From assembly GCF_019175385.1 (NCBI RefSeq), contig NC_083346.1, forward strand, positions 61,223,821 through 61,287,820: a stretch of 64,000 bases of DNA. The letters are read 5' to 3'. The position numbers and the translations under genes are program-made. This document shows positions 9,993 to 44,758 of this stretch, one piece after another (within the stretch, counting starts at the first letter, position 1; every line of letters starts with the position of its first letter). The notes below the pieces were generated by a model. The model was given only the letters and a program-made list of their open reading frames with translations, was not told the origin of the DNA and did no database searches. This DNA is from Lycium barbarum (lineage: Eukaryota > Streptophyta > Magnoliopsida > Solanales > Solanaceae).

Positions 9993-10033
9993 TCCTCCCC
10001 CCCCCCCTTTAGAACATTCGTCCTCGAATGTTC
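9993..10033 (-). promoter_or_regulatory. M1 polypurine tract with adjoining AGGA-loop hairpin
   Basis: On the minus strand an inverted repeat GAACATTCG-AGGA-CGAATGTTC (10012-10033) is followed by a tract of A and G with an 11-G run that abuts the LTR start TGTTATAGCC at 9992. The position fits the plus-strand primer (polypurine tract) of an LTR retrotransposon. Confidence 0.85.

Positions 10034-11569: not shown

Positions 11570-11572
<3 letters not shown>

Positions 11573-11601
<29 letters not shown>
11573..11601. repeat. TA microsatellite
   Basis: Uninterrupted alternating T and A over about 29 bp. Simple sequence, inside the M1 internal region. The homologous position of element A (about 59747-59754) has only a short TATATATA. 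Confidence 0.95.
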
Positions 11602-11606
<5 letters not shown>

Positions 11607-11818
11607 TATCAACTAGCCCACAGAATACTTCCAAACGCTATTCCAGCCTATCCAAATTTCCAGAGCTGTGACGCACTTTCTGTCTCTTCACCAGTCTAGT
11701 CTGCCTCGTCCTGTGCGACTTCTTATGGTCTCCAACCATCCCGTATATTCTAGTTTCCCTTAGGCCACTCTAACTTCTCATTTGTCTCTTATGTCTGGAT
11801 ATATAGAATTTCTTGCAT

Positions 11819-11907
11819 ACTTCCCAGGGGGTCACCCATCCTAAAATTGCTCCCACCTTAGCACGCCTAACCTCGAAACTTTGATGGAATCTGGTGCATT
11901 AATGCTG
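11819..11907 (-). other. 5S rRNA-derived module in M1
   Basis: The 89 nt on the minus strand align without gaps to about nt 15-103 of plant 5S rRNA as I know it; by hand I count about 70 of 89 identical. The best-kept parts are the A-box side (GGCGTGCT) and the C-box end (GGATGGGTGACC then CTGGGAAGT). It lies in sense with the retroelement. The first ~14 nt and the last ~17 nt of 5S rRNA are missing and there is no T-run just after it, so it is not a functional 5S gene. Related blocks occur in A (29772-29860) and M2 (36502-36580). Confidence 0.82.
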
Positions 11908-12687
11908 ATATAATCATGTCCACTTCCTCGCATGACCTTTATTACATGTTCTGGGGCAAGTCAAAGTCTTACAGACATCGAGACATTTTCGTAACACGTC
12001 CTTTCTTTTACAATTTCTATTTTACCCTTTTCAATCCTCAATATTCACCTTTCGCTTTCGGGTATGACTACCTTTCGTCCTAGATTCCCAGGTTCCCGAT
12101 GATAAAAAATATACCTTCGTCGCCGTTACTTGTAAGTACTCCGGTATCAGTCTGTTCGGATTCCCACTCACCATTCTTGTATAATAACTTACAGCAAAAC
12201 TGATTGTCGACTTTCTGAATCCTCCAACAGACCTTGCTCTTACTGAACCTCGGATGTTATCCATTTTAATCCTCTGGACTGCTAATTGTATTTCTCACCA
12301 TGCCAAATCCATAACCTGTTTGAAACAACGCATCTCACTTATTGCCTATTTACAGTATTTCCTTTCCACACTTCTTCCTGTTAGGCGTATCCATTTTGGC
12401 AGAATCTCTTTTACTATTCCTACTATTCAAGATCTGTACGCAGCAAATATCGACAATGTCTCACAGGGCATACATATGTATACGACACATCTCAGCCATC
12501 CAGAGCTTCCAGTTTCAGGTAACAGAACAGAATATCAATACTTACCCCTGTGACTTTCCATATCGCTTCTCACCTTCTTCCGTCGTATGTAAGGCTTGTA
12601 TAAGGAATTCCTTTTTCCTATGACTTGGCTCTATCGTACGATCTAAGATAGAAAGAAGGTCAACAATCCCTAGATTCCCCGCAGCCT

Positions 12688-12727
12688 CCTGTTTATAAAT
12701 ATGGCCGGCTTCACACCCATAAACAGG
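12688..12727 (-). promoter_or_regulatory. M1 leader hairpin with palindromic loop
   Basis: On the minus strand (RNA sense) 16 consecutive pairs form, four of them G-U, closing an 8-nt loop AAGCCGGC that ends in the self-complementary GCCGGC. On the opposite strand the G-U pairs would be A-C mismatches, which points to an RNA-level structure in element sense. It lies about 45 nt downstream of the primer site, as in A, C and D. Confidence 0.75.
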
Positions 12728-12770
12728 ACTCTACTGGACACGACTTTGCAGACAACCCCTAGTACGACCT

Positions 12771-12782
12771 GCTCTGATACCA
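12771..12782 (-). promoter_or_regulatory. M1 primer-binding site (initiator tRNA-Met)
   Basis: The minus strand reads TGGTATCAGAGC, the usual complement of the 3' end of plant initiator tRNA-Met, 3 nt after the LTR end ..TGTGACA at 12786. It sets the element's orientation as minus. Confidence 0.92.
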
Positions 12783-12785
12783 CTT

Positions 12786-15700
12786 TGTCACACCCCAACC
12801 TTACTAGGGTGTGACGGGCACCCGACCCCATATTCGTAGCCGAGCGAACCCGCTGACTCTTATTACATACATAATCTCTTAGGACCTTTAAATCAAATAA
12901 GAATGAAATACATAGTAAAGCCTTCAGAAAAATTTTCTTTCATCGTACTCAATCAAACAAAATCTGTGGTCATGTGGAGTCTGTAACATAAAATATAAAG
13001 ACACATCGGCTGGTGAAGCCGCTTTCAAGACTGACATACTACACCCACGACTCTGTCTGCAAAGTCTCTAACTTCGAACAAAACATCATAGCACAGTACT
13101 CTGACCCGACAACACTCTAGAGCAAATGGAGCTTGCCAACTCCGCTGGAACATCTTCTATAATAGCTTCTACTCATCTGGGTGTACCTGCGCGACATGAA
13201 ACGCAGCCCTCGAGGAAAGGGGGTCAGTACGAGTAATGTACTGAGTATGTAAGGCATGAATAGCAACATAGTAAGGGATATAAATATGAATAATAACGGA
13301 ATAGAAATATAGAGCATATCATGAGATGAAAGAGTAACCTGTACATCTGAGTGCCTCTTAGGGCGGATGCTATGCATGCTTAGTGCTGCGGAACGTGCAG
13401 CCCGATCCATGTATATACATATATACATATACCCATAGTAATACTTTCTTAGAAAACATTTCTTTTCCATATATATAGAAAATAGAACATATCATATTGC
13501 CGAGGCGTCGGAAGCCGATCCATTTAACCACATATATCCCGCATCCGGGCATCCCGCGTCCGGGATGATATCATGTCATATAATACCAGCTGATCAGGTG
13601 GATACGCGTATATAAAGCTCTGGCCCTCTTTCCCATCTTCCCCATATACATATGCATGTATCATGTACATATACCAGCGTCTATAGTGCTCTGGCCCTTT
13701 TTCCCATATTCCCCATATACATATACATATATCATGTAAGCAGCATGCAGGAGAGCCCAAGAAAGTCATGTATCTATCGGAGTGACGTAAGGTCAGTAAC
13801 CTCCGATTACATTATGGAATAATCATCCCGACTTTGTCTCACCTTGAAGGAACAATTTTTATAAGATGAGACAAGCAACGAGTAACAACATACATAAACC
13901 GACACCTGAAGGCTCAGAAACATGTTTCGGGCCAATCCGCTTTCGTATAAGAAAGTTATGAGCGTTTGAAGTACAGAACCTTTTACGAAAAAATTTCGGA
14001 AGCCATTTTTTGGAAAATCATTCTTATCATAGTCATCATAGAAATATTCTCATCCTCGACATCATCAGTGTCATTGTAAAACATATTCATCTTTATTGTC
14101 ATAAGATCTTACAAAATCATAAACCTCTGTTTTGTAGAATATAGACACTTTTAGAAAAAGACATTTACGAGTTATCGGGAAGAGAATCATGCTTTGAAAT
14201 CATAAACATCTAACTTTTGAAAACGAGAAAGATACGGAAACAATTATAAGATCATAACATTGGGATCATGCCTTGAAAGAAAAGGGACGAGCCTTAACAT
14301 ACCTACTCTACGTCCTATTAGCTACGCTTAATTGTCTAAGCTCGTTATCGCTAGTCAACATTCAAGAAGATTGACACACTCATTAGATTCATCACCATAT
14401 ACTTGTCTTAATTCTTTAAATGAATTCATTCATAATCTACCGAAATTTCGGCAGCACCTCCTCTGTAAATACACCTTCCCCGAGAATCTGACTCGGCCAA
14501 TTTTTTATCAACAACAATCCGAGAATTCAACTCGGCCAAATTATCATCAACAACAATACCAACAATCATACTTCCAACTTCATCAATTAATTCAAAATGC
14601 ATTCTAATACTTGCAGTTTTTTCTATTCAAATCCAACCACATATGATCAAGCCAACACCAATGCTCACTCATTTAAGTACTAGTCCAAGACCATTCAAAC
14701 AAGACTTAAAAACATTTCATACAATGTTCAAAATAGCGCAACTACTATACCATTCCACCCGAAATCTCACAACACCACCAAGGACAACAACACATTACTT
14801 TCTTCCAAATTCATGAACTCCACCAACATTTTACATTAACAACTTCATTCATACAAATATATGATTCATGCTAGTGTTACATTAACCTCCTCAACAACTC
14901 TACAATGATCACAACGTCATTCTTATAATTACAAGAAATTATATTAAAATCACATTAGCTTCTTCAATAATTCACAAACAATTACCACTTCATTTCAAAC
15001 CATTAAATCTTCATTTAACATCATAGAATCCACAACTACAACAATTTAAATACTAAATAAAATCAATTCATCACATCTTACCCACCTAGCTACTATTCGG
15101 CCAAACACCCACACACATATATATCACATGAATTTCATCCATTTCTTCATACAACAACATGCATAAACCACCCACAACATATGTAAAAGAGGGTTGAACA
15201 CATACCTTTCTCACCCAACTTCTTTACTTGGATAGGGCTTATGAATTACACAAACAAAGGTGTTGCTTGCTCCAACAACTCCTTCATGTTAATAAGGACC
15301 TTCCATTTGGTGGAAATACTAGAAGAAAATAATTTTCCTTGATCAATTTCCATGGCTTCAAATTTTTCCACCATGGCCGAACCCTTTTCCTCCTTTCTTC
15401 TTCTCTTTCTTTCTTCAAGCTTCTTGAATTTTCATGAAAACAATTATACCTTACTTGCCACTACTTCTCCATATTTATACTTAGGTCCTACAAATAAAAC
15501 TGTGGACACATGGCCATGGGGTGGGGCCCACTCTTTGTGTCACATGGCCAAAGTGGAAATTTTCAAGAACTTTCAAGAATTTTTTTTTTTTTGTGAAATT
15601 CTCATTTTGCCCCTAGCCTTTCCACAATATTACCATGGACCATTTTGCGAATTTTCCTTTTTACCCTTAGCATTTCTCAATATTTTCGTACTAATAGAAC

Positions 15701-15817
15701 TCATAAATAATATTCATAACCCACTTGTACATTAAAATAATTTTGGAAGATGGTCATTTCCTTAACTTACCACGACTACCTCGAAATTTCCGAACGCACA
15801 AAAAACGGGCTATAACA
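12786..15817 (-). repeat. M1 5' LTR (right copy)
   Basis: 3032 bp, from TGTTATAGCCCG (15817, minus strand) to TGTGACA (12786). Same features as the left LTR: twin hairpin near 13185-13222, donor-like motifs, and a short GC-rich tandem repeat with one unit fewer (about 13538-13567). Target duplication TAATT follows at 15818-15822. Confidence 0.92.
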
Positions 15818-27888: not shown

Positions 27889-27900
27889 TGGTATTAGAGC
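27889..27900 (+). promoter_or_regulatory. Element A primer-binding site
   Basis: TGGTATTAGAGC, one base different from the initiator tRNA-Met complement TGGTATCAGAGC, 4 nt after the LTR end. It places the 5' end of the internal region here. Confidence 0.88.
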
Positions 27901-27942: not shown

Positions 27943-27982
27943 CCTGTTTATAGGTGTGTAGCGCGCCACACTTATAAACAGG
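27943..27982 (+). promoter_or_regulatory. Element A leader hairpin with GCGCGC loop
   Basis: CCTGTTTATAGGTGTG (27943-27958) pairs over its whole 16 nt (one G-U) with 27967-27982. The 8-nt loop TAGCGCGC (27959-27966) ends in the self-complementary hexamer GCGCGC. It lies about 43 nt after the primer site, upstream of gag. Confidence 0.78.
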
Positions 27983-28077
27983 AGGCTGCAGGGCATTTAG
28001 GAAATCTGACCTTCTTTGTATTCTAGATCGTGCGATAGAGCTATGTTACCAGGTTTGCATGTTCTTCTCCTAATCCT

Positions 28078-28097
28078 GTGTTATGGTTTCAGTAATG
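28078..28097 (+). promoter_or_regulatory. Splice-acceptor-like site before gag (A)
   Basis: GTGTTATGGTTTCAG just upstream of the gag ATG at 28095, with a pyrimidine-rich stretch and CTAAT about 20 nt upstream (near 28070). C has the same GCGTTATGGTTTCAG (32586-32600) before its gag ATG at 32605. It matches a plant 3' splice site; splicing is inferred, not shown. Confidence 0.4.
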
Positions 28098-29369
28098 CCG
28101 GTAAAGAGGAAAGCTACGGCGGCTCAGAAGGGCAAGACGGTGGTTGGAAGAAGAGTTGAACAGGAGCTACCGGCGGAAGTAGAAGAAGGCGAGTCTCACA
28201 ACGAGGCTCCTCCCCAGATTTCTCCTACTTCCCCTGTATCAGCAGAGCAGGAGAGAGCTCTAGCTCCAGCCCCAGCACCTCCAGTTCCACCGCCAGCAGC
28301 TTCGGGCCAGCAGATAACAGAGGCTATTCAGTTGCTGACCCAGCTAGTTGCCGCACAAGCTCAACGGCAAGACGCAGACCAGGGAGACAGGGCAGTGAGT
28401 GCAAGAGCCCGTGATTTTATCGCCCTGAAACCTCCGGAGTTTTATGGATCGAAACCAGAGGAGGACCCGCAAAGTTTCATAGATAAAATGTTGAGGACAC
28501 TGAGGATAATACATGTTTTGGATACAGAGTCAGTAGAGTTGGCTTCATACAGGTTGCGGGATGTAGCAGTTCAGTGGTATAATAATTGGATATCTTCGAG
28601 GGGAGCAATTGCACCTCCCCTGGTTTGGCAGCAGTTCACTGAGGCATTTCTGCGACATTACTTACCGCCGGAGGTTCGACGAGCTCGAGCCGATATGTTC
28701 TTGAATCTCAAACAAGGGAATATGAGCGTCCGAGAATACAGTCTTCGTTTTAACTCTTTGGCCAGGTATGCCACAGCCATGGTGGCTGTTATGGGAGATC
28801 ATGTACATCGGTTCGTGAGTGGGTTGGGGCCACATTTGGTTAAGGAGTGTTTGACAGCTTCACTCCAGGATGGAATGACTATTACACGTATCCAGGCCCA
28901 CGCCCAAAATCTGGAGGAACAACATCAGCTACAGAGAAGTGAGCGTTATTCTGATAGGTGTTCCAGAAAAAGGGCAAGATCCTTCGAGACTAGAAGTGAG
29001 TATAGAGAGGGACAAGCACAACAGCAATCCAGGCATTCAGGCCGACCAGCGGCCAGCACACCTCCTCGGTTTGCGAGTGGGAGATTTGATCGCCCTACCT
29101 ATTCAGGACCAGATCAGAGTGCCAGAGCTTCAGGGTCCCGGTATAGAGTTGATTCTAACAGGATGGGGCTACCCCCACCGCGATGTGCTCGCTGTGGCAG
29201 GCCACACTCTGGGCAGTGTTACCTAGATACAGGTGCATGTTTTGCCTGTGGTCGGACTGACCATTTGATGCGTGATTGCCCACTAAGGAATGAGGGAGGA
29301 AGAGCTCAGCCCGCCGGATCGGCAATTGGTTCGTCATCGACTGTGCGCCCTCCTGGACAGACTTCCTAG
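28083..29369 (+). CDS. gag: Gag polyprotein of element A (Ty3/gypsy, Tekay-like), open frame
   Basis: Encodes up to 428 aa of a structural Gag that would form virus-like particles and bind element RNA. A second ATG at 28095 (MPVKRK..) is the more likely start: it follows TTTCAG at 28087-28092, and the equivalent ATG is the first one in the gag of C. Residues ~1-100 are a basic then proline/alanine-rich leader; ~111-290 form a Retrotrans_gag-type domain (EFYGSKPEEDP, RLRDVAVQWYNNW, PPEVRRARAD..FLNLKQGNMSVREY). A CCHC zinc knuckle uses C386, C389, H394 and C399; a second cysteine/histidine cluster is at C368, C371, H375 and C379. The frame stops at TAG 29367-29369, but the same frame carries on in Gag-Pol style into a protease stub, so the stop looks acquired. 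No RT or RNase H follows; only a decayed integrase trace remains, near the 3' LTR. Confidence 0.85.
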   Translation: MVSVMPVKRKATAAQKGKTVVGRRVEQELPAEVEEGESHNEAPPQISPTSPVSAEQERALAPAPAPPVPPPAASGQQITEAIQLLTQLVAAQAQRQDADQGDRAVSARARDFIALKPPEFYGSKPEEDPQSFIDKMLRTLRIIHVLDTESVELASYRLRDVAVQWYNNWISSRGAIAPPLVWQQFTEAFLRHYLPPEVRRARADMFLNLKQGNMSVREYSLRFNSLARYATAMVAVMGDHVHRFVSGLGPHLVKECLTASLQDGMTITRIQAHAQNLEEQHQLQRSERYSDRCSRKRARSFETRSEYREGQAQQQSRHSGRPAASTPPRFASGRFDRPTYSGPDQSARASGSRYRVDSNRMGLPPPRCARCGRPHSGQCYLDTGACFACGRTDHLMRDCPLRNEGGRAQPAGSAIGSSSTVRPPGQTS

Positions 29370-29968: not shown

Positions 29969-32398
29969 TGTTACACCTCGGGAATTTCTCCGTACTTGTA
30001 TGGTGAGTGGAATGATGAAGAGTTTGAGTGTATGATGAGTGGAATGATGAAGAGTTTGAGTGTATGATGTTTTGTTAAGTCGGGAATGGCTAATTAAAAA
30101 TTTTTGGAAATAAGAAAGTCGCAGAAAATTTTCTGTCCAGTGGTCGTATATGGCACATACGGCCCGTAAAGTGATTTACGGACCGTATAGTGCAATCGTC
30201 CTTCAGCTTGCCAAAAATCTCAAGTTTTGCCCAGTGTTGATATGGTTAAATACGACCCAGTTTACGGCCCGTAAACTGGTTTACGGTCCGTAAACCAGGT
30301 CATAAACTGCCATGTTCCTCAGCCAAAACTTTCTGTTTTTGAAATGATTAAATACGGCCATGGAGGACGGGCCGTAAATCGCAATACGATCCGTATATGG
30401 TGGTTTACGACCACTGTTCATCCCGACAAGAATTCATTAAAGATCAGATTTTGTGATTTTTAAAGGGGACTTAAGCTCATTTCATCTCATTTTTCATCAA
30501 GACAACTCAAGAGACTTCTAGAACTCTCCAAATATTTCCTCCACAAGAATTCAAGAGAATCAAAGGGGATATCAAGACCAACAACACTAATTTCATAAAA
30601 ATAAGTGTAAGAACACATCAAAGGATCTTCTAGGTGAAGAAATTTCAAAGAAGATGGGACTAGGGTTTTGGCTAATTGAAGTATTTGAACTTAAGGATTG
30701 TTCAACCATCATCCAAGGTAAGTTTCATGATTATTCCATGTTGTTTGAAGTATTGGAAAGCTTAGACACTTGAAATGTAGAAGAACATAGAAATGGGTCA
30801 TTATTGAGTGAATAGTGACATAAATGAATGATAGTGGAATTGAACTATGAATATTGAAGTGTTGTGAGTACAAATACGTTATAAATGATGTTTATATCAT
30901 GAAACAAGCATTAAATGCATGAAAACGCAAGGATGAGCTAGAAGTAGAAATAAGGGAAAATTGGAGGAAAATGGTAGATGTTGCTAAACGCACGTAAATG
31001 ACAATTGTCGATTATGATATTGCGAATAATATTATGAATATTTGGAGTTGATATAGAACGTGAGAAAATTAGTATGAGCGAAGGAAGCGTTGTCCGACTT
31101 TTCCTAGAATTAGCGATGCGTTCTTGTAGTTAAGTTACTAATGTTGATACGGATTCTCTTATGAAGGTAACGACGTGATATCGACGGAGAACAAGTGAGC
31201 GATATCTTAGCTAAACGACCAAGGTATGTGAGGCTAGTCCTTCTTTCTAATGGCATGAATCTTTTAGCTTGAATCCCTATTCCTTTCATGAGTTCTTGCA
31301 TTCTAAGAAGTTAAAAGCTTATACCTATAAATGTCTATATGAGATAAGTTATACGATATGATGACACTAGAATGATGATGATGTTATTCCTTGCCTACAC
31401 TCACCTTATGTTCTAGTCCTTTCAAGGTGAGGCAGAATGTCCATAATGGTTCCGTAATGTAATCGGGGGATCACGACCTTACGTCACCCCGATAGAGTAA
31501 AGTTGACCATGAGCCTTATACACGCATTATGATAAGATAAGTATTTTATGATAAGCATATTACTATGAGTATTTACATTAAGCATGTCATGATTGCATTC
31601 ACACCGGGCCTAGTTGGCCGGGCAGACACCGCTTCGGCGGGCGGCGATACGGATACACCACGACCTACGGGCGTGGGCAGACACCACTAGTGGGGGCGGC
31701 ATGAGATGGTACCCCGGACGCGGGAGGCCTGGACGCGGGCTAATATTATTGATTATCACACCGTTCCGACATGGACGGGCAGCTTGCATATGAAGCATAC
31801 ATGTTATGATGATGAGTATGAGTAAGATAGCATGCATTACTTCATTTATGATTATCAGTCAGATCCAGATGTCTCATGTTGATGTTATTCCCATACTATT
31901 GATGTCTCCTTTCATGATGTATGCCTCTCATACTCGGTATAATATTCGTACTCACGTACTTTCTTCGGACGCTGTGTTCATGCCCACAGGTAGGCAGGGA
32001 GGAGAGCTTGGCCCAGGTCCTCAGTAGCTGTCAGCTGATAGATAGCACTCAATTGTTCGGAGGTGCTTATGGATATTCTTTTGATGTACTTTCATATATG
32101 CATATTTTGGGCATGACGGAGTCTTGTTCCGTCTATGTATTCATTATGTTAGTAGAGGCTCGTAGATACGCAGTGTGGGTTAGATGGTCTCACAAGATGT
32201 TTTCATATGTATGTATATTATTTTGATGGCCAAGAGGCAAATGTATATAAAGTATTTATGTTTTGATTAAATATGATTTTCCTACAAATGCTATGTAAAT
32301 TGATAAAAGAGTATTAAATGAGCAAGACAAGCAGTAGAGTGAGCGGTGCTCGGTAATTGCTCTGGGTACCCGTCGCGGCCCCTAGTCGGGTCGTGACA
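29969..32398 (+). repeat. Element C 5' LTR
   Basis: 2430 bp, TGTTACACCTCGGG.. to ..GGGTCGTGACA. It is longer than the 3' LTR because of a 32-bp tandem duplication near 30001-30066 and a 19-bp longer palindrome region near 30271-30300. It holds a cluster of TACGGNCCGTA-type palindromes (about 30150-30420), donor-like motifs (30715-30722 and 31221-31235), a GC-rich short repeat (about 31710-31738) and the twin-hairpin block (31955-31990). Confidence 0.93.
30150..30420 (+). repeat. Cluster of TACGG-CCGTA palindromes in LTR C
   Basis: Several inverted repeats of the type TTTACGGCCCGTAAA and ATACGG..CCGTAT, singly and in pairs that can fold on each other. The 3' LTR has the matching cluster at about 57395-57640 with one palindrome fewer. 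Confidence 0.8.
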
Positions 32399-32402
32399 GA
32401 AG

Positions 32403-32414
32403 TGGTATCAGAGC
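32403..32414 (+). promoter_or_regulatory. Element C primer-binding site
   Basis: TGGTATCAGAGC, a perfect initiator tRNA-Met complement, 4 nt after the LTR end at 32398. Confidence 0.95.
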
Positions 32415-32457
32415 AGTTCGCCCTATGAAGTGTCTACGAGCCGTGTCTAGTAGAGTC

Positions 32458-32495
32458 CTGTTTATGGTGTGTTGCGCGCCACGCTAATAAACAAG
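32458..32495 (+). promoter_or_regulatory. Element C leader hairpin with GCGCGC loop
   Basis: Inner stem GTGTG (32467-32471) with CACGC (32480-32484, one G-U), outer stem CTGTTTAT with ATAAACA.G, separated by a small bulge. The 8-nt loop TTGCGCGC (32472-32479) ends in self-complementary GCGCGC. Same distance from the primer site as in A. Confidence 0.72.
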
Positions 32496-32604
32496 AGGCT
32501 ACAGGGCATTTAGGAAAATGACCATTCTTCTTCTCATGAAATCGTGCGATAGAGCCATGCCTAGGATTATGTTCTTCCTAAAAGTGCGTTATGGTTTCAG
32601 AAAA

Positions 32605-33454
32605 ATGCCGCCGAAAGGAAAAGCTACAGCTTCCTAGAAAGGCAAAGCTACGACGAAGAAGCGGGCAGAAAGGGAGCCTCCGGCAAATGTAGAGAAAAGT
32701 GAATCGCAAAGTGAGGCTGCGCCCAATGTAGAAAAGCAGGGAGGAGCCTCAGCTCTGATTCCTCCACCTGGTGCTTCGGGTCAACAAGTGTCCGAGGCCA
32801 TACATTTATTGACATAGTTGGTTGCCGCTCAGGCACAACGACAGAATGCGGGCCCAAGTGATCGTTCGGCTAGTACAAGAGCCCGTGATTTCCTTACTCT
32901 AAACCCTCCAGAATTTTTCAGGTCGAAGCCGGATGAGGACCCACAAGGTTTTATCGATGAGATGTTGCGGACGCTGAAACTTATGCATGCTTCTGAGACC
33001 GAATTCGTGGAGTTGGCCTCATATAGACTTCGCGACGTGGCGGTACTATGGTATAATAATTGGGTGATAACAAGAGGAGAGAACGCACCACCTCCCGTTT
33101 GGCAAGAATTTGTGGATGCCTTTATTCGTCATTATTTTCCTCCTGAAGTCCGCCGAGCTAGAGCAGACAGGTTCTTGAATTTGAAACAGGGAAGCATGAG
33201 TGCCCGAGAGTATAGTATGCAATTCAACTCATTGGCCCGGTATGCTCCGACTATGGTGGCTGACATGGGAGACCGAGTCTATAGATTTGTGAGTGGTTTA
33301 GGACCACACTTGTTTCAGGGATTGTCTGACAGCCTCTTTGCAAGACGGGATGGATATTTCCCGGATACAGGCCCATGCTCAGAACCTCGAGGAACGACAA
33401 TGACAGCAGAGAAGTGATCGTGATGGTGACAGAAGACAAGGTAAGAGGGCTAGG
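32605..33454 (+). pseudogene. gag: Gag of element C, broken and truncated
   Basis: Starts MPPKGKATAS right after TTTCAG (32595-32600). In-frame TAG stops lie near 32635 and 32815. The central Retrotrans_gag-type domain is clear in the frame covering 32818-33417 (ARDFLTLNPPEFFRSKPDEDPQGF, YRLRDVAVLWYNNW, PPEVRRARADRFLNLKQGSMSAREY). A 1-base shift near 33315 moves the next part (SLQDGMDISRIQAHAQNLEE) to another frame, where a TGA follows near 33403. At about 33455 the sequence changes to the LTR of M2, so the C-terminal zinc-knuckle region and the start of protease are deleted. It resembles the gag of A closely along the core domain. Confidence 0.85.
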
Positions 33455-33595
33455 GCCCCGCCGTACCCTGAATAAACATAAACATATACATCGGAAGGGT
33501 ATGTACCCAAAACGTCGGCTCCGGAACAAAGGGAGCACTCCGAACCGCAAAAGGGAAATCCTACGCCAGTGGGTCACCAAAACGTGAATCTGTAC

Positions 33596-33631
33596 CTGCG
33601 GGCATGAAACGCAGCCCCCGAAGAAAGGGGG
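33596..33631 (-). promoter_or_regulatory. Conserved LTR twin-hairpin block (M2)
   Basis: CTGCG (33596-33600) / CGCAG (33610-33614) followed directly by CCCCC (33615-33619) / GGGGG (33627-33631); loops GGCATGAAA and GAAGAAA on the plus strand. Confidence 0.65.
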
Positions 33632-33868
33632 TCGGTACGAAAGATGTACTGAGTATGCAAAGCATGAAGTACAGAAAACGAAGACATAACCGAAGTAAAA
33701 TGTACAGAAGGTGAGCACAATAGCCAAAATACCAAAGTGTTGCATCTGACGTACAAATCATACATAAAAGGTTCCGGAAGACAAATACGGCAATCAAAAT
33801 GCAAAAATACTTTGCTTTCCTTTGAAAAGCTTTTCCGTCTCATACACACAGAAAATCAAACACACAAT

Positions 33869-34089
33869 TACCGCGGCCAAAAGTCCAGCGGTCACTATCA
33901 CACATACCGCGACCAAGTGTCCAGCGGTTAGCATCCCAAACCCAACATACCGCGGTCAGGGGTCCAGCGGTCAATGTCGCAGATACTGCGGTCAGGGGTC
34001 CAGCGGTCAACATCACATAGTGCGGCATACCGCGGTCAGGGGTCCAGCGGTCAATGTCGCACACATCGCGGTCAGGGGTCCAGCGATTA
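33869..34089 (-). repeat. ACCGC minisatellite, M2 (6 units)
   Basis: Six units of about 36 bp (one longer) with core ACCGCGGTCAGGGGTCCAGCGGTC on the plus strand in most units, related to the arrays in B and D. Confidence 0.9.
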
Positions 34090-35931
34090 ATATCACATAG
34101 TGCACACAATAATATAAATGCCAAATTTATTACTTTCCAAACATAAATCACACATGCCAGAATCATGCATCACACAAGAATCGTATATCAGGAAAAATAC
34201 AGAAGGTAAGTAGCTTATCCAGAATATCAGAATACTTACTTTTATATCATACAAGAATAGCTCCAGTGAGACAAACGAAGGAAGTTTTGGAACTTGTGGG
34301 CCCACCTCGGGTCAAGTCGAGGTGGCGGATATAAATTACAAACATTGGACTCTATGGAGTCATCCATGAAGGTTTCAAAGCGAGCCGATCACGTCTGTAC
34401 GGGTTATGGATGTTTGAATAGTTTTCCAACAAAACTTAAGGACTATAATTCAATTGTGCTGAATGAATAGTACCAAAATTTAGACTCGCTTTTCTATGAG
34501 CAGAATAACCTACGAGGCTCAAATCCGAATCTAGTACACCTAGGACATGACAAGAGAAGAAAAGGGGTAGCTTTACATACCTTAGTTGCGCCTTACGCTC
34601 GTCCAGATTCAATTCCCATTTCGCCCAAAATCTACAAATGGTCATATTTACCAATTGTCAATAGTAAGACTTTTAGCATTTGAATCTTTAGTTCATTACT
34701 TGTCTACAAAAATTTGGGCAGCACCTCCCCTATACATATAGCATCCCCGAGAATATAACTCGGCTCAAAATATCAGCAACCAAACCAACAACAATACCAA
34801 CAATCATTATAAAACACAATATAGCATAACTAGTCTTCTTTCCAACATAATGCAATAGCTTTCCTTCCAACTTCGCATTTTCGAATCAATACCAACATTC
34901 TCATATTCATTACCAACCAAGATCATCACAATACAATTCGGAAGCATTTCATATCATTTCTACAAAATATCCACAAAATATACAAACTGCCACCAAAACC
35001 ATAATTCACCTAAACTTCCAATCTTCAACATAAACATCCACAACATATTCTTATCTTCCAATTTCATTTACAACAACAACAATTTGCATCTTACAACTTT
35101 CATTTCCATATTTACATAAACTATAATAAAGTTGTGTATTTTCCTACAACAACTTAACAATGGATTTTCATGCCAACTTGAACTATTCTCCTTCATTTAC
35201 TCCACAAGAACACAACAACACAATTAATACACTAAATAAAATAAATTCATCTTCTCGCCAACACCCACCACATCCGGCCACATACAAACACACCCATAAC
35301 ACATCAATTTCACACTTTTTATTTATTTCCACATGCTACAACATATATATATAATTCTTCCAATATAAAAGGGTGAAATTCTTACCTTTTCTAATTTTTC
35401 CCACTTGTCACAAGAAGCACTTTCTTGCCTCAAAATTTATATCATGTTGGAGAGGATCTTGAGCTTAGTAGAAATACAAGAAGATTTGGATTTTTGAATC
35501 AAAGATTGATGAACTAAAAATTTTTCTTCTATTTTTTTCTCTTGGCCGAAACCCTTGGCCTTCTTTTGCTCTCAACTCTTTTTTTTTGTCTCTTGAATGT
35601 TCTTGAACCAATGAATAAAATGGCCCCTTTCTCTTATTTAATTACTCACTTTGGCCCCTCCATGGGCCTTGGCCCAACCGGCCACTTCCTCACTTTGGGC
35701 CTCATTTTCTCTTATTATTTTTTAGCCCAATTAATTATGAAGCTTGTTTTGTAATTCCCGAAACTAATCTCCGAAATTCCAATTTTCGCCCTTGACCTTC
35801 CCCGATGCCTTCACGGCAATATTTTTCATGGACAGCATGGACATATTAACTAAAATCAAAATATTGCCTCATGACATACAAGTCGCAATTATTTCAAAAT
35901 TTTCGAGTATGCGAAAACACGGGATATAACA

Positions 35932-35968
35932 TCCTCCCCCCCTTTAGAACATTCGTCCTCGAATGTTC
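35932..35968 (-). promoter_or_regulatory. M2 polypurine tract and AGGA-loop hairpin
   Basis: Minus strand: GAACATTCG-AGGA-CGAATGTTC (35947-35968) then an A/G tract ending in GGAGGA next to the LTR start at 35931. Same arrangement as in M1. Confidence 0.85.
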
Positions 35969-36903
35969 AACTGACCTTATGGGGGTCATCGTACTTCGGG
36001 AAGGTCTCTGTCTTTCCTTCAAGAAATTTTCAAACGCTACCATAGTTATTTTCCCCTTTTCCCTTATTCATTTCCTTCTATTCCCGAGCATCGCTATACT
36101 AAAACCTTTCCACTTTGCCTGGTGGAACTAGTATCCGTCTACTCATAACATCCATACCATATTTTTTGCTTCGTCTTGTAGATTCCGTTTAGTCATTGTC
36201 TCTTATGTATTACAACACCGACTGCTGGGGCCCACCGTCGATCGGTGCGGTCATAAATGGGATGTCGTACGCATGCACGTATATTTACTACCATTCTGCT
36301 AACAAGACATTTCCGAACACTTATTCAAACTTACTCTGATCACAAAACTGTGTTGCGCTCCCTTTCCCTTTACCGGCTGGGTCCGCCTTAGCCTACTTGA
36401 CCTATTCAGGGTTTCTACCCGTTCAGTACATCTAATTCCATTTAAGTTACACCAAATTTCCCATTTGCCTTTTGTATCTACATTTATGAAAATTTCGGGG
36501 TACTTCCCAGGGGGTCACCCATCCCAAAATTACTCTGGCCCCAACACGCTTAACCTCGAAACTTTCATGAGTTAATGCTAATATAATTACGACAACTGCC
36601 CCACATGACCTTTGTCACGCAATATAGGGCAGATCGGGGTCTTAGTGAGTTTTCGGAAAGTTTTCGTAGCGGGTCCCACCCCGGTCTAAACCATACAATT
36701 ATCATATCGCTCCTCTGAATCCTCAATATCCTTTTCCATCTGTATATTTATAGCTATCTCATATAGTTCTATTGGGTTGAATTACCTTAGTTTTACCAAC
36801 ACCCAGAAAAAGAAAATCACGTAATATGATAGAGTACAGATCTATCCATACACATATCTCTTAAGAAAAGATTAATGATATACCTGGGTCTGCACTTGGT
36901 GCC
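35969..36903 (-). mobile_element. M2 internal region (remnant)
   Basis: Non-coding, homologous to the internal regions of A and M1: the flanks of the 5S-like block match, and the CTTCCCGAAGTA motif near the polypurine tract is shared. It ends at 36903, where the first LTR of array D starts without any primer site, so the D array was inserted here. GTGCC (36899-36903) is the candidate target duplication; its partner on the far side is lost. Confidence 0.7.
36502..36580 (-). other. 5S rRNA-derived module in M2
   Basis: 79 nt matching the same 5S rRNA region as in M1 and A but with one clean 10-nt deletion near its start. The A-box-side GTTAAGCGTG and C-box-side GATGGGTGACC and CTGGGAAGT are kept. 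Confidence 0.75.
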
Positions 36904-37451
36904 TGTCACGACCCAACCCCGTAGGCCGTGACTAGTGCCCGAATTGGACACTCATATTGCCGGTTAACTGTAATCATTTATAACTAGTATGTCATGAACT
37001 TATTTGTATAAAAAGGTATGGTGTTGTTTTAAAGCTGTCAAATTTTTTTTTTGTATGTCGTAGGCACCTGTCTCCTGAGGAGTTACAATTTTTTAAACAA
37101 CAACATATATTTTTCTACGCAAGCCGACAAGGCTGCCACGATATGCAACATACCAAACATACATATATATGCAAGCCGACAAGGCTGCCATTACGAATGG
37201 GTACGCCCCAAACATAAGTCATAGTCATACAACGCATCAACAATAACATACAGACCCACAAAGATGTCCACAGACCTCTAAGAGTAATGACTGTATCATA
37301 TGGCGGGACAAGGCCCCGCCGTACCCAATTAAACACATATGAATACAACACAAAGGAGTTATACCACAAGCTAGCTCCGGAACAAAGGAGCAGTCCAAAA
37401 TAGCTGAATAGGTACCCTAAGCTGACGGATCTCCAAAACGAGCGTCTGTAC

Positions 37452-37487
37452 CTGCGGGCATGAACGCAGCCCCCCGAAGAAAGGGGG
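37452..37487 (-). promoter_or_regulatory. Conserved LTR twin-hairpin block (D, first copy)
   Basis: CTGCG (37452-37456) / CGCAG (37465-37469), then CCCCC (37471-37475) / GGGGG (37483-37487). Repeated in the other D LTRs near 41889, 46338 and 50787. Confidence 0.65.
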
Positions 37488-37821
37488 TCAGTACGGAGTA
37501 TGTACTGAGTATGTAAAGCATGAAATATAGTAAATAGAAACATATCTGAAGTGAGTAGCATAAGATTCAGTACAAAGACCAAAAATCCCAAGACTTACTT
37601 GTCACATAATTCATCATAAGTTTTAGTAATCATAACAAGGTAGTCATATCATATGTAAGTACATATATATCGTGTCCCGCCCCTTTTGTAAGGGACTCGG
37701 TAAGTAAAATCATATTATAATCATACATATATATAACGTGTCCCGGCCCTTCAATAAGGGACTCGGTATTAAAATCATAGCCTCATAAACATAAACATAT
37801 ACACATATACACATATACACC

Positions 37822-37959
37822 TACCGTGGCCAAGTATCCAGCGGTCAATATCACACATACCGCGGTCAAGTATCCAGCGGTCAATATAACACATACCGCG
37901 GTCAAGTATCCAGCGGCAACATCACACATACAAATACCGCGGCCAAGAATCCAGCGGCG
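37822..37959 (-). repeat. ACCGC minisatellite in D LTRs (4 units each)
   Basis: Four units with core CCGCGGTCAAGTATCCAGCGG. Counterparts lie at 42259-42394, 46707-46844 and 51156-51293, each with four units and private point changes. Confidence 0.92.
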
Positions 37960-40311
37960 ATACCACAAATATGCAATTCATCTTCGGTTTTTTTTTTTTT
38001 TTTTGAAATCTCATTACTAACTATAGCAAGGAACATCTCAGATTTTATGTACATGCGTACTTTAATCATGGTGTAACTTTGAGATCAAGTATGTCTCTAG
38101 TTGTGGAAATATTCAAGAGTAGGAACTTCTATGCATCATTCATTAGTCAATCATATAATAAACTCATGACAATAACATTACAGAATGAAAAGGATCACAA
38201 ATCATGCTTGGAACTAGAGAGTAGAATTTACCCCAAGGTTCATATCATTTCACACTTACGTCTAGGACATGCCAAGAAAAGAAAGGAATAGGCCTTACAT
38301 ACCTTTAGCGTTTAGTCGTATAATAACTTGTACTTGCTGCCCAATGGTACTTATCCTATATCAAGATATCACAAGCTATGATTAGGTTACGAGGGAATTC
38401 GATACGTATTTTGACACTCACAATCCCTTTCTAACATTTAGACGACGTTTCGTTCGCATTCAAACCAACTAGTGCTACAAGCTAATATTGCTAGTCATTC
38501 TTTCATGTATCAATCCAAACTTGTATAAACATGATTTAAGGGACTTTGGACAGTCCATACATCATTCGAAACTGTCCCATACTCACGGCCAAACAGCACA
38601 CACAACACTACAATTTCTATTTCGCAATTTTCCAACTTCAATTACAACGACAACAACACGTTTACAACATTACTTATAAGATTATCGGAACTGTTTCAGC
38701 ATCATATTTATTCTTATAACAGCCCACAAACCATTTCAATTTCAACTTGAATCATTAAGCTTCACTTTCACTACACGTTCATAGCAACAATCAATATTCA
38801 ACATTCACTAATTTGCTTCTAACCTTAAAACAGTCCACTGTTTTGGACTGCTTGCGTACTTCAATTTAATTTGTTTCTTTAACACCTAAATTCCCATATT
38901 CAACATACATACAATATACCACAATGTTCATAACAACAACAATCAAAACTTGGCACAAAACAGTCCATAATTTCCCCTAAAACAGCCCCTTTACACGGCT
39001 TCAACACAACTTCATGATTTTCATCCATTCATCCAAACCACAACACATTCAATCCATCTCCAATACATGTACAAGGAGATTAAACATGATTCCATTAAAG
39101 CCTACAACACATGGCTCATTTAAACTTTTTAGAAAACAGTCCATTACCACAACATGTCCAAAACAGTCCAATAACATGTCCAAAACAGTCCCTAAACAAT
39201 GTTCGGAATTCTTGCAAACATTTACGAACATACTAAGCAAACCACCTATGATTCTTACACATTATTTCATGCCTTCTTTTCATATATTTTCAGTAGGTTA
39301 TGACCAGCTATCCACACGACAAATACAACATCAATTCATACACAACTAAACTACATCGTCATTTCTATAATCCATACAACAACTCACAAACGATTTTAGT
39401 TTCAACTCCAACCATTAAACACCTTCATTTCCATCATGAAATTCATGATAATAACAATCAAAATATCAAGTAAAAACAGTTCACTAGCTTCCTCACAAAA
39501 CAGTCCAATACCAACATACAACATCATAAACCAACTTCTACAATCTTTGTTCATTTACATATGTTGACACCCATTCAATTCACCAACAATACATACAAAA
39601 TGAAACCAACCATGGCTTCCCCAAGCTCACGACTCAACCCCTTACTTCAACCACAACAACAATCCAATAACAACATGCATGAATTATACATTCAAATCGT
39701 CATGCAACACAAGAACAATAATCATTGTTACCTTACAATCTTGTTCTTCACTTTGGCCGAATCTTCAACACTATTGAGGTGCTACACTTCTTTGTTTCTT
39801 TTCAACAACTACTACATATTATTGTACACTAAATGAGGAGTTGATTTGAGGAAGAAAACTGATTTTTTTGGATTGAATCTAACTCACCACTTTCGGCTAG
39901 CTCTAGGTCAAGAGTTTCCCTTTCTCTCTCTATGTGTTCTTAACTTGTAAGTGTTGAAATGAGTTGTTAAAGTGGAGTAAATCAGATTTTTCACTATGTG
40001 TATTCCCTACAAGACATGGACATGTGTACCACACTAATCTTGGGTCAATAACCTTTGACCATGACACTAATCTACACGGCTACACATGGAAAAATATGGG
40101 CAGATTTTTTTTTGTTCCCAATCCCACTTATGGTTAGTTTAATCCCAATTTTTCTATTAATATATCAATGCCAAACGAAATTGTAGTTAAATTATGACTT
40201 GAAACGAATCCGGAAGTTAAAATATCTACTTCGTATCTTAAAATAGTCTTTTCTTTAACTTGCCACGTTTAGTTTAAAACGTCCCAATGTATGAAAATAT
40301 GGGATATAACA

Positions 40312-41340
40312 TTCTTCCCCCCTTTAGAACATTCGTCCTCGAATGTTACATTAGTGTTGCCTAAGCATACTTAACCTTTCACCCTTCCTAGTCAATCTTA
40401 TCCTTCATAACCTCACAGCCTGTCTTACCAATATATTCACATCCGTCACAATTCTTTTTCTTCTGTACTCTTGTCTTAAATCATACTATTACTTCTTTTA
40501 ACTATAAACTCGTCATAATTTATCCCTGCTTATCAATTCAGTCGGTACCTCATATAACACCCTATTAAGATTTGCCAGCCTTATCTAAATCATCTCTTAA
40601 TATCATAAACCCTTTCCAAATTCTGCTTTTACCGTATCGATATCGACTTCCTAATTACTATTACCATCGATTCGGCAGTCGACTTATTTCTCGCAGTCAA
40701 CTACACTCACCACTTAGTCCACTCTTATCATTACCGTTGACACGACCTTTCAAAACATATTAATTACTAATATCTCATTCCTTTTATATTTGTAGGAAAT
40801 GTTTTGCAGAGTTCACTCTGTATTTCTTACTATCCCAGAACCTGCACGCAGGAAATACCAACAATGCCTCACAGGGCCAACATATATATATATACACATC
40901 ATATCATATCACAGCCACACAGGGCTCCCAATATTAACAACAGTACGAAAATGATGGACTTACCTCGTATGTCTAATCCAAACTGCACCTGTTATACTTT
41001 CTCTTTCAATTCTCAACTTTACATTTCAATCGCACTTCCATTCCTTACTCGACATATACCTTTCGTACCTTTGCTTACCTGCGTACTTTGAAACTTCCAA
41101 TATCATCAATCACTTTCTTCTGTCGATGTCGTTCTTCAACTGAAATCAAATGTTAGTATAAAGAATTTCATTTCTTATGACTGGACTCTATCGCACGATC
41201 CTAGATATGAAAGAAAGGTAACATCCTAAATGCCCTGTAGCGTCTTGTTTATAGATGTGGTGCACAACACATCGATAAACAAGACTCTACTAGACACGGT
41301 CTGTAGACACTCCTAGGACGAACTGCTCTGATACCACTTC
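40312..41340 (-). mobile_element. D internal region 1
   Basis: 1029 bp with polypurine tract and AGGA-loop hairpin at the left (40312-40347), leader hairpin at 41242-41285 and a perfect initiator-Met primer site at 41325-41336 (all minus strand). The middle lacks gag and pol. A CCTGTGAGGC.. motif also occurs in C just after the chromodomain (57107-57116), so the unit looks like a direct fusion of leader to post-pol sequence. No 5S-like block is present. Confidence 0.88.
41242..41285 (-). promoter_or_regulatory. D leader hairpin with GTGCAC loop
   Basis: 18-position stem with one mismatch, closing an 8-nt loop (TTGTGCAC on the minus strand) that ends in the self-complementary hexamer GTGCAC. 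Several stem pairs differ from those of A and C but remain paired. Identical copies lie at 45689-45732 and 50138-50181. Confidence 0.78.
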
Positions 41341-44300
41341 TGTCACGACACAACCCCGTAGGCCGTGACTAGTGCCCGAATTGGACACTCATATTGCCGG
41401 TTAACTGTAATCATTTATAACTAATATGTCATGAACTTATTTGTATAAAAAGGTATGGTGTTGTTTTAAAGCTGTCAATTTTTTTTTTTGTATGTCGTAG
41501 GCACCTGTCTCCTGAGGAGTTACAATTTTTTAAACAACAACATATATTTTTCTACGCAAGCCGACAAGGCTGCCACGATATGCAACATACCAAACATACA
41601 TATATATGCAAGCCGACAAGGCTGCCATTACGAATGGGTACACCCCAAACATAAGTCATAGTCATACAACGCATCAACAACTACATACAAACCCACAAAG
41701 ATGTCCACAGACCTATAAGAGTAATGACTGTATCATATGGCGGGACAGGGCCCCGCCGTACCCAATTAAACACATATGAATACAACACAAAGGAGTTATA
41801 CCACAAGCTAGCTCCGGAACAAAGGAGCAGTCCAAAATAGCTGAATAGGTACCCTAAGCTGACGGATCTCCAAAACGAGCGTTTGTACCTGCGGGCATGA
41901 ACGCAGCCCCCCGAATAAAGGGGGTCAGTACGGAGTATGTACTGAGTATGTAAAGCATGAAATATAGTAAATAGAAACATATCTGAAGTGAGTAGCATAA
42001 GATTCAGTACAGAGACCAAAAATCCCAAGACTTACTTGTCACATAATTCATCATAAGTTTTAGTAATCATAACAAGGTAGTCATATCATATGTAAGTACA
42101 TATATATCGTGTCCCGCCCCTTTTGTAAGAGACTCGGTAAGTAAAATCATATTATAATCATACATATATATAACGTGTCCCGGCCCTTCAATAAGGGACT
42201 CAGTATTAAAATCATAGCCTCATAAACATAAACATATACACATATACACATATACACCTACCGCGGCCAAGTATCCAGCGGTCAATATCACACATACCGC
42301 GGTCAAGTATCCACGGTCAATATCACACATACCGCGGTCAAGTATCCAGCGGCAACATCACACATACAAATACCGCAGCCAAGAATCCAGCGGCGATATC
42401 ACACATATGCAATTCATCTTCGGTTCTTTTTTTTTTTTTTTTGAAATCTCATTACTAACTATAGCAAGGAACATCTCAGATTTTATGTACATGCGTACTT
42501 TAATCATGGTGTAATTTTGAGATCAAGTATGTCTCTAGTTGTGGAAATATTCAAGAGTAGGAACTTCTATGCATCATTCATTAGTCAATCATATAATAAA
42601 CTCATGACAATAACATTACAGAATGAAAAGGATCACAAATCATGCTTGGAACTAGAGAGTAGAATTTACCAAAAGGTTCATATCATTTCATACTTACGTC
42701 TAGGACATGCCAAGAAAAGAAAGGAATAGGCCTTACATACCTTTAGCGTTTAGTCGTATAATAACTTGTACTTGCTGCCCAATGGTACTTATCCTATATC
42801 AAGATATCACAAGCTATGATTAGTTTACGAGGGAATTCGATACGTATTTTGACACTCACAATCCGTTTCTAACATTTAGACGACGTTTCGTTCGCATTCA
42901 AACCAACTAGTGCTACAAGCTAATATTGCTAGTCATTCTTTCATGTATCAATCCAAACTTGTATAAACATGATTTAAGGGACTTTGGACAGTCCATACAT
43001 CATTCAAAACTGTCCCATACTCACAGCCGAACAGCACACACAACACTACAATTTCTATTTCGCAATTTTCCAACTTCAATTACAACGACAACAACACGTT
43101 TACAACATTACTTATGCGATTATCGGAACTGTTACAGCATCATATTTATTCTTATAGCAGCCCACAAACCATTTCAATTTCAACTTGAATCATTAAGCTT
43201 CACTTTCACTACACGTTCATAGCAACAATCAATATTCAACATTCACTAATTTGCTTCTAACCTTAAAACAGTCCACTGTTTTGGACTGCTTGCGTACTTC
43301 AATTTGATTTGTTTCTTTAACACCTAAATTCCCATATTCAACATACATACAATATACCACAATGTTCATAACAACAACAATAAAAACTTGGCACAAAACA
43401 GTCCATAATTTCCCCTAAAACAGCCCCTTTACACGGCTTCAACACAACTATAACAACTTCATGATTTTCATCCATTCATCCAAACCACAACACATTCAAT
43501 CCATTTCCAATACATGTACATGGAGATTAAACATGATTCCATTAAAGCCTACAACACATGGCTCATTTAAACTTTTTAGAAAACAGTCCATTACCACAAC
43601 ATGTCCAAAACAGTCCAATAACATGTCCAAAACAGTCCCTAAACAATGTTCGGAATTCTTGCAAACATTTACGAACATACTAAGCAAACCACCTATGATT
43701 CTTACACATTATTTCATGCCTTCTTTTCATATATTTTCAGTAGGTTATGACCAGCTATCCACACGACAAATACAACATCAATTCATACACAACTAAACTA
43801 CATCGTCATTTCTATAATCCATACAACAACTCACAAACGATTTTAGTTTCAACTCCAACCATTAAACACCTTCATTTCCATCATGAAATTCATGATAATA
43901 ACAATCAAAATATCAAGTAAAAACAGTTCACTAGCTTCCTCACAAAACAGTCCAATACCAACATACAACATCATAAACCAACTTCTACAATCTTTGTTCA
44001 TTTACATATGTTGACACCCATTCAATTCACCAACAATACATACAAAATGAAACCAACCATGGCTTCCCCAAGCTCACGGCTCAACCCCTTACTTCAACCA
44101 CAACAACAATCCAATAACAACATGCATGAATTATACATTCAAATCGTCATGCAACACAAGAACAATAATCATTCTTACCTTACAATCTTGTTCTTCACTT
44201 TGGCCGAATCTTCAACACTATTGAGGTGCTACACTTCTTTGTTTCTTTTCAACAACTACTACATATTCTTGTACACTAAATGAGGAGTTGATTTGAGGAA

Positions 44301-44758
44301 GAAAACTGATTTTTTTGGATTGAATCTAACTCACCACTTTCGGCTAGCTCTAGGTCAAGAGTTTCCCTTTCTCTCTCTCTGTGTTCTTAACTTGTAAGTG
44401 TTGAAATGAGTTGTTAAAGTGGAGTAAATCAGATTTTTCACTATGTGTATTCCCTACAAGACATGGACATGTGTACCACACTAATCTTGGGTCAATAACC
44501 TTTGACCATGACACTAATCTACACGGCTACACATGGAAAAATATGGGCAGATTTTTTTTTGTTCCCAATCCCACTTATGGTTAGTTTAATCCCAATTTTT
44601 CTATTAATATATCAATGCCAAACGAAATTGTAGTTAAATTATGACTTGAAACGAATCCGGAAGTTAAAATATCTACTTCGTATCTTAAAATAGTCTTTTC
44701 TTTAACTTGCCACGTTTAGTTTAAAACGTCCCAATGTATGAAAATATGGGATATAACA
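41341..44758 (-). mobile_element. D LTR 2
   Basis: 3418 bp. The plus strand starts TGTCACGACACAA with one change relative to LTRs 3 and 4. It adjoins the primer site of internal region 1. Non-coding. Confidence 0.92.

What the first reader, a model, noticed from the sequence alone, without database searches (positions are those of the whole stretch)
27943..27982. Leader hairpin with a self-complementary hexamer loop, conserved by compensating changes in four families
Just after the primer site, A (27943-27982), C (32458-32495), D (41242-41285 and two copies) and M1 (12688-12727, minus) each form a 16-18-bp stem with an 8-nt loop. The last six loop bases are always a palindrome, but not the same one: GCGCGC in A and C, GTGCAC in D, GCCGGC in M1. 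Stem bases also change in pairs, and in M1 four pairs are G-U only in the RNA sense of the element. This is the signature of an RNA kissing-loop, like the dimerisation initiation site of retroviruses (HIV-1 also uses GCGCGC or GTGCAC there, established knowledge). Packaging of two RNAs by a plant Ty3/gypsy particle, and pairing of non-autonomous with autonomous RNA through matching loops (A and C share GCGCGC), would follow as inference.
Basis: partly seen in the sequence, partly recalled or inferred. Interest (0 to 1): 0.87.

Follow-up and report, generated by a model that had tools for sequence, protein, structure and literature searches.

The report
RNA pairing hairpin in goji retrotransposons
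Plant jumping genes carry, shortly after the site where their copying starts, an RNA hairpin whose tip is self-complementary and stays so when its letters change, which suggests that two of their RNAs join tip to tip before packaging, much as retroviruses do.

Summary
All four leaders fold into a rod of up to 27 pairs (z -2.8 to -6.7) with an 8-nt loop ending in a palindromic hexamer (GCGCGC, GTGCAC, GCCGGC). Relocating the observed substitutions at random never kept as many pairs (0 of 50,000). In the first 100 listed the hexamer is palindromic in 84; in 99 full hairpins 84, the other 15 one substitution away. The palindrome type changes at least 7 times on a weakly supported tree. Best explanation: a kissing-loop RNA dimerisation site in plant Ty3/gypsy chromovirus elements, working like HIV-1 SL1; dimerisation itself is inferred. 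Limits: few independent events, possible exchange of the hairpin as a block, defective loops that do not favour G-U, no conserved flanking purines. Pairing of non-autonomous with autonomous RNA is open: A matches C, but D and M1 do not.

The parts
27889..27900 (+). PBS of element A (one mismatch to TGGTATCAGAGC)
27943..27982 (+). A leader hairpin, 16 bp, loop UA+GCGCGC (hexamer 27961-27966); whole rod 27928-27998
28027..28036 (+). second self-complementary 10-mer AUCGUGCGAU (with U-G wobbles) in A
28083..29369 (+). gag ORF of A, 428 aa, with zinc knuckle
32403..32414 (+). PBS of element C
32458..32495 (+). C leader hairpin, loop UU+GCGCGC (hexamer 32474-32479), one bulge and one mismatch; rod 32442-32511
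29969..59629 (+). element C (LTRs 29969-32398 and about 57254-59629, 5-bp target duplication GGGTA), with D and other insertions inside; RT in 54021-55193, integrase in 55586-56749, chromodomain in 56713-57096
41242..41285 (-). D leader hairpin copy 1, loop UU+GUGCAC (hexamer 41260-41265); PBS 41325-41336; rod 41228-41298
45689..45732 (-). D leader hairpin copy 2; PBS 45772-45783
50138..50181 (-). D leader hairpin copy 3; PBS 50221-50232
12688..12727 (-). M1 leader hairpin, 16 bp with four G-U pairs, loop AA+GCCGGC (hexamer 12704-12709); PBS 12771-12782; rod 12672-12742
12633..12642 (-). second self-complementary 10-mer in M1, perfect palindrome ATCGTACGAT
6959..15817 (-). element M1, LTRs about 3.0 kb, target duplication TAATT, no match to gag of A or C or RT/integrase of C inside

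Best explanation
The leader rod is a dimerisation initiation site. Shown by sequence: a hairpin about 40 nt after the PBS, whose loop hexamer is self-complementary and stays so while its letters change, in three common versions, in RNA sense, in elements with and without coding capacity. Inferred: two genomic RNAs pair hexamer to hexamer (kissing loop), may open into an extended duplex, and are packaged as a dimer by Gag of a chromovirus element; the RNA dimer serves packaging and template switching. Predicted consequence: RNAs of one loop type prefer each other (A with C; D with D; M1 with M1).
For: Position and fold. Substitutions relocated at random in the four-row alignment: paired fraction 0.892 on average, observed 116 of 119, 0 of 50,000 as good. 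Loop: of the two-letter changes possible from GCGCGC only 9 of 135 give a palindrome, yet both other window types are palindromes. Genome: 21,086 PBS-anchored matches, control 0; hexamer palindromic in 84 of the first 100 and in 84 of 99 full hairpins, the other 15 one step away. In those 99 the next best 6-column window of the rod is palindromic in 25. Loop columns 35/38: TA 55, CG 39, 5 of other kinds; columns 36/37: GC 88, CG 4, 7 of other kinds. One more palindrome, GCATGC, was seen by eye in one of the 100 rows listed. At least 7 changes of palindrome among 34 intact loops on a tree built without the hairpin. Internal homology of D to A and C is limited, in the parts compared, to the first ~157 nt after the LTR, which contain PBS and rod; D and M1 show no match to gag, RT or integrase of A or C, so the block is kept for a cis role. 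Predicted gain on pairing: self -11.4 to -14.5 kcal/mol; A-C -10.5; other cross pairs 0.0 to -7.3.
Against: No experiment; dimerisation is not observable from sequence. Copies are related: on well-supported branches only 3 and 2 independent pairs test the two variable loop positions (none goes the wrong way, too few for significance), and 18 of 41 inner branches of that tree are open. Some rows look like exchange of a whole hairpin (L081: C-like backbone, D-type hairpin), so not every change is a point-by-point compensation. Defective loops hold 9 A-C and only 3 G-U cells, so one-sided changes show no preference for RNA wobble; GCGCAC alone occurs 453 times in the genome (counts to set against it were not obtained). 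48 of 99 hairpins have a C-U mismatch at columns 25/46. The two stem anchors of the genome pattern are fixed by construction, so the middle stem says nothing there. HIV-1's conserved flanking purines are absent: linkers are UU in 76 of 99, and no free base follows the hexamer. The energies model extended duplexes, not kissing loops.
Confidence: 0.72

Rival explanations
1. Packaging (psi-type) hairpin bound by Gag, with the palindromic loop needed for protein binding or an intramolecular contact and not for RNA dimerisation.
For: The whole ~157-nt block, not the loop alone, is conserved in D and M1, which show no gag match; stem letters TGTTTAT/ATAAACA are themselves invariant in the four. Overlap or closeness of packaging and dimer signals is usual in retroviruses (PMC5086612, passages seen).
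Against: A protein site would be expected to fix one loop sequence; here three palindromes coexist and the two halves of the loop vary together.
Confidence: 0.17
2. Common descent plus exchange of ready-made hairpins: a few ancient loop types spread by recombination, with no present selection on self-complementarity.
For: Hairpin blocks seem to move between backbones (L081, L087, L094); few independent double changes can be counted.
Against: Does not explain why each common loop type is a palindrome, why non-palindromic loops are single steps away (15 of 99), or the pair-keeping pattern of stem changes.
Confidence: 0.06
3. Translation control: a stable hairpin after a short ORF for ribosome shunting, as in plant pararetroviruses (recalled mechanism).
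For: In A a four-codon ORF ends inside the lower stem of the rod (sequence); the gag ORF starts 101 nt after the hairpin.
Against: The ATG is absent in C, D and M1; D and M1 have no gag match; a palindromic loop is not needed for shunting.
Confidence: 0.03
4. A DNA-level inverted repeat (cruciform, insertion target or enzyme site) and not an RNA structure.
For: The palindromic loop and arms also exist as DNA (sequence).
Against: G-U pairs in the sense strand against A-C: 20 to 1 in the four window stems, 430 to 23 in 99 (a few fixed wobble pairs carry much of that count); antisense folds are weaker in 4 of 4.
Confidence: 0.02

Closest known systems
HIV-1 SL1 dimerisation initiation site
   Same: Leader hairpin with a six-letter GC-rich palindrome in the apical loop, the same hexamers GCGCGC and GUGCAC, internal loop below the upper stem (PMC5874298 and PMC7357161, passages seen).
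   Different: 8-nt loop with two unpaired bases before and none after the hexamer, not flanked by conserved purines; a GCCGGC type in addition; longer stem; the element is a plant Ty3/gypsy retrotransposon.
Ty3 (yeast Ty3/gypsy) PAL6 dimerisation sequence
   Different: Ty3's lies at nt 391-396, seemingly within gag; no family-level covariation is in the passages seen.
Ty1 SL1a/SL3a kissing complex
   Same: Loop-loop start of dimerisation proposed in an LTR retrotransposon (PMC5454406, passages seen).
   Different: Two different complementary loops, not one self-complementary loop.
BARE1/BARE2 (barley) dimerisation and packaging signals
   Same: Plant LTR element; [quoted passage not shown]
   Different: Ty1/copia element; no kissing hairpin is described in the passages seen (the word kissing does not occur).
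MPMV / MMTV palindromic stem-loops
   Same: Six-letter GC-rich palindrome on a stem-loop close to the packaging determinants (PMC5086612, passages seen).
   Different: Other hexamers, animal retroviruses.

Membership tests
Retroviral-type dimerisation initiation site (works-like claim) | Stem-loop in the 5' leader near the PBS | tested here: met
   pattern anchored on the PBS matches 21,086 times
Retroviral-type dimerisation initiation site (works-like claim) | Self-complementary GC-rich hexamer in the apical loop | tested here: met
   4 of 4 window families; 84 of the first 100 genome matches
Retroviral-type dimerisation initiation site (works-like claim) | Self-complementarity kept through sequence change, with relatedness taken into account | tested here: inconclusive
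   three hexamers with coupled halves, at least 7 changes on the tree, but only 3 and 2 independent pairs on supported branches
Retroviral-type dimerisation initiation site (works-like claim) | Purines flanking the hexamer (HIV-1 form of the motif) | tested here: not met
   linker UU in 76 of 99; no free base after the hexamer
Retroviral-type dimerisation initiation site (works-like claim) | RNA dimerises through the loop; loop change blocks it, matching change restores it | not testable with these tools
   needs native gels or probing
Rfam families | Match to a curated RNA family | tested here: not met
   0 matches at gathering score in the window
Plant chromovirus (Ty3/gypsy), Tekay/Del | Ty3/gypsy gag, RT, integrase and chromodomain | tested here: met
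   C: Retrotrans_gag, RVT_1, Integrase_H2C2 and SH3_Tf2-1 above cut-off, rve just below it; Chromo E 7.3e-6, 26.3 bits against cut-off 25.1
Plant chromovirus (Ty3/gypsy), Tekay/Del | Placement in the Tekay clade by RT tree | not tested

The most novel reading that the evidence does not exclude
The loop palindromes act as dimer-compatibility groups inside one genome: the more than 20,000 hairpins (100 examined) fall into a few loop types (GTGCAC, GCGCGC, GCCGGC, rarely others such as GCATGC) that pair with their own kind, so that the hexamer decides which RNAs, autonomous or not, share a particle and recombine; and hairpins are exchanged as units because template switching starts at the dimer site.
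Probability: 0.25. Interest if true: 0.85.

Novelty: new variant of a known kind. Interest (0 to 1): 0.66.

Why it matters
Ty3/gypsy elements are a large part of many plant genomes (general knowledge), but how their RNAs are chosen, paired and packaged seems little studied: ten literature searches, of which I saw titles and abstract beginnings of capped lists, showed no description of a kissing-loop site in a plant Ty3/gypsy element, in a library without most subscription journals. A short RNA motif with natural loop variants in thousands of copies makes RNA dimerisation, parasitism by coding-free elements and recombination in plants directly testable.

Tried and rejected
Relatives outside the genome: DNA patterns in viral and prokaryote collections gave nothing useful. 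The single match (L001) shows none of the leader after its 18 matching bases; the 11 loci were not read. One search used a wrong gap length and is void as a test. Searches for relatives of A gag and C RT in viral contigs: none confirmed. Plasmids, leader of A: no match. Rfam: none.

Rejected or held unlikely: shunting (ATG in 1 of 4 families), DNA-level hairpin. Not completed: genome-wide counts of GTGCGC and GCGCGC were asked for but not answered, those of GTGCAC and GCCGGC were planned and not sent, so GCGCAC (453) has no partner and the wobble test at genome scale is open. The A-family sample (27 of 28 with GCGCGC) was picked by similarity to A and tests only constancy within that family.

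Full report
WHAT IS THERE. The window is plant DNA with nested Ty3/gypsy elements. The best gag relatives are annotated in Lycium barbarum. Five contig lengths listed there for L. barbarum (143530904, 133540852, 134699017, 149041705, 106533526) equal those of C5, C8, C7, C4 and C12 of the own genome; five others (C1, C2, C3, C6, C10) differ by some thousand bases, so the genome is very likely that species, perhaps another version. Four families have leaders in the window: A (gag ORF 28083-29369; only a weak integrase-like piece of pol found, at 63372-63530), C (29969-59629; gag, RT, integrase and chromodomain matches spread over several frames), D (minus strand, a tandem array with three leaders) and M1 (6959-15817, minus). 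D and M1 show no match to gag of A or C or to RT or integrase of C.

THE HAIRPINS. They lie at the stated coordinates and, read in element sense, each has an 8-nt loop of two free bases plus a palindromic hexamer: UA-GCGCGC (A), UU-GCGCGC (C), UU-GUGCAC (D), AA-GCCGGC (M1). The structure is longer than reported: a lower stem, a small internal loop, then the 16-18-bp upper stem, in all a ~71-nt rod; z-scores -6.5, -2.8, -6.7, -5.0. C is the weakest, with a bulge and a mismatch.

MORE THAN CHANCE. In a scan of both strands of the window for 14-bp stems (one mismatch allowed) with 8-nt loops, 9 of 9 leader rows and 0 of 21 other rows have a palindromic hexamer (strands and repeat copies counted apart, C missed). 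In the four-row alignment 116 of 119 cells pair and 4 pairs change on both sides, 2 of them in the loop; 6 of 500 shuffles do as well. Moving the observed column changes to random columns with the same base gave a mean paired fraction of 0.892 and never the observed value in 50,000 trials. Of 135 two-letter changes of GCGCGC only 9 give palindromes. Sense-strand G-U pairs against A-C in the four stems: 20 to 1.

THE GENOME TEST. The pattern PBS - 25 to 50 - GTCYTGTTTAT - 12 to 36 - ATAAACA matches 10,538 times forward and 10,548 reverse in 1.67 Gb, reversed pattern 0; a hairpin-only pattern matches 22,478 times. The first 100 places (C1, 1.8-24.9 Mb, in order of position) were all examined: hexamer palindromic in 84 (GTGCAC 52, GCGCGC 31, GCCGGC 1) and not in 16. 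All 100 were fetched; one with a deletion in the loop was dropped from the column counts. Of the 99, 84 are palindromic and 15 are one substitution from one of the three. The anchors fix the middle stem by construction, so only the loop, the upper stem and the lower stem are informative. Loop columns 35/38 read TA 55, CG 39, CA 3, TG 1, GA 1; 36/37 read GC 88, CG 4, AC 3, CA 2, GT 1, GA 1; upper-stem columns 27/44 read GT 46, GC 32, AT 18, GA 1, GG 1, AC 1. Other six-column windows of the rod reach at most 25 of 99 palindromic. Among 59 distinct hairpins 46 have complementary loop halves; shuffled halves 22.3 on average, at most 34 in 10,000 shuffles; this control ignores relatedness. Of 28 loci picked by similarity to A (8, 20) 27 have GCGCGC and one GCGCGA.

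HOW OFTEN DID IT CHANGE? A tree of 44 leaders with the hairpin removed (4 from the window plus 40 of the 100, chosen by me to over-represent unusual backbones and defective loops) needs at least 7 changes among 34 rows with intact palindromes. Support is modest: 15 of 41 inner branches starred, 18 open. On starred branches the two variable loop pairs give 3 and 2 independent comparisons, of which on average 1.8 and 2.0 go the same way and none the other way; the stem pair 27/44 gives 3, of which 1.5 go the same way and none the other; this cannot reach significance. Some changes look like exchange of the whole hairpin: L081 has a C-like backbone and a D-type hairpin, L087 and L094 sit with M1 but carry GCGCGC. 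One further palindrome, GCATGC, was seen by eye in one of the 100 rows listed, which were not tallied otherwise.

RESULTS AGAINST. Defective loops contain 9 A-C and 3 G-U cells, the opposite of what tolerance of wobble in RNA would give; they look like decay after insertion. GCGCAC occurs 453 times; the matching counts could not be obtained. Columns 25/46 are C-U in 48 of 99. The sense G-U excess in 99 rows (430 to 23, with 100 other mismatches) rests in good part on a few fixed wobble pairs. D's antisense fold is nearly as good as its sense fold (-29.3 and -33.5).

MECHANISM. Best supported is a kissing-loop dimerisation site. Shown: location, fold, self-complementarity in most copies examined and through change of letters. 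Inferred: dimerisation, packaging, template switching. Predicted gains on pairing are -14.3 (A), -14.5 (C), -11.4 (D), -14.1 (M1) for self pairs, -10.5 for A-C and 0.0 to -7.3 for other cross pairs (extended duplex model); bare hexamers give -10.9, -7.9 and -11.7 for self pairs and -2.2 to -6.6 across types. So the loops sort the window's elements into A with C, D alone and M1 alone. If C's particles carry D or M1, as their lack of genes would need, matching loops are not the means; or other families with GTGCAC or GCCGGC supply Gag. This was not tested. The block shared by D with A and C (157 nt, about 82%) holds PBS, rod and the second 10-mer and is the only internal match found between them in the parts compared (A only to 30000, C only to 36880); D and M1 share three internal stretches (187, 77 and 31 nt).

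KNOWN RELATIVES. HIV-1 SL1 uses GCGCGC, GUGCAC or GUGCGC in its apical loop with flanking purines and an internal loop (PMC5874298, PMC7357161; passages). Ty3 of yeast has a palindrome needed for dimerisation in vitro (PMC11381356; passages); for Ty1 two complementary loops are proposed (PMC5454406; passages); for barley BARE2 conserved dimerisation and packaging signals are mentioned (PMC3735527; passages). A review of host factors of plant LTR elements has the word kissing once, for the MusD export element (PMC12786077; passages), and a survey of plant elements mentions the retroviral SL1 as background (PMC3902901; passages). None of the ten searches (capped lists of titles and abstract beginnings) listed a kissing-loop site in a plant Ty3/gypsy element; subscription journals are mostly absent from that library. 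It works like a retroviral site by the features testable here except the flanking purines; proven RNA dimerisation, which membership would need, is untested.

Noticed in passing
28027-28036 (A), 32541-32550 (C), 41190-41199 (D, -), 12633-12642 (M1, -): A second self-complementary 10-mer ends the conserved leader block: ATCGTGCGAT in A, C and D (pairs with itself if U-G is allowed), perfect ATCGTACGAT in M1. Each 202-base leader holds 2-3 such wobble 10-mers, this one included, and 26 of 44 rows keep one of the two forms exactly, so it is only a lead for a second dimer contact.
   Followed up: partly
40328-40347 (-) and 10012-10033 (-): Just before the G-rich tract at the LTR, D and M1 share a 31-nt identical stretch with a perfect 8- to 9-bp hairpin, AACATTCG-AGGA-CGAATGTT.
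   Followed up: no
36903-53429: D is a head-to-tail array of four LTRs and three internal regions, period about 4448, the large repeats 98-99% alike; its last LTR on the right looks truncated by about 230 bases.
   Followed up: no
16337-26538: Two 5.1-kb tandem copies, 98% alike, lie within what seems to be the 5' LTR of element A.
   Followed up: no
60143-63297: About 2.8 tandem copies of a unit of about 1118 bases within element A, about 99% alike.
   Followed up: no
27922-27936: In A only, a four-codon ORF with its ATG ends inside the lower stem of the rod.
   Followed up: partly
protein hits P0047, P0069, P0074: Proteins with gag-like similarity are named as helicase or kinase in Lycium ferocissimum records, which may be retroelement pieces annotated as host exons.
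   Followed up: no
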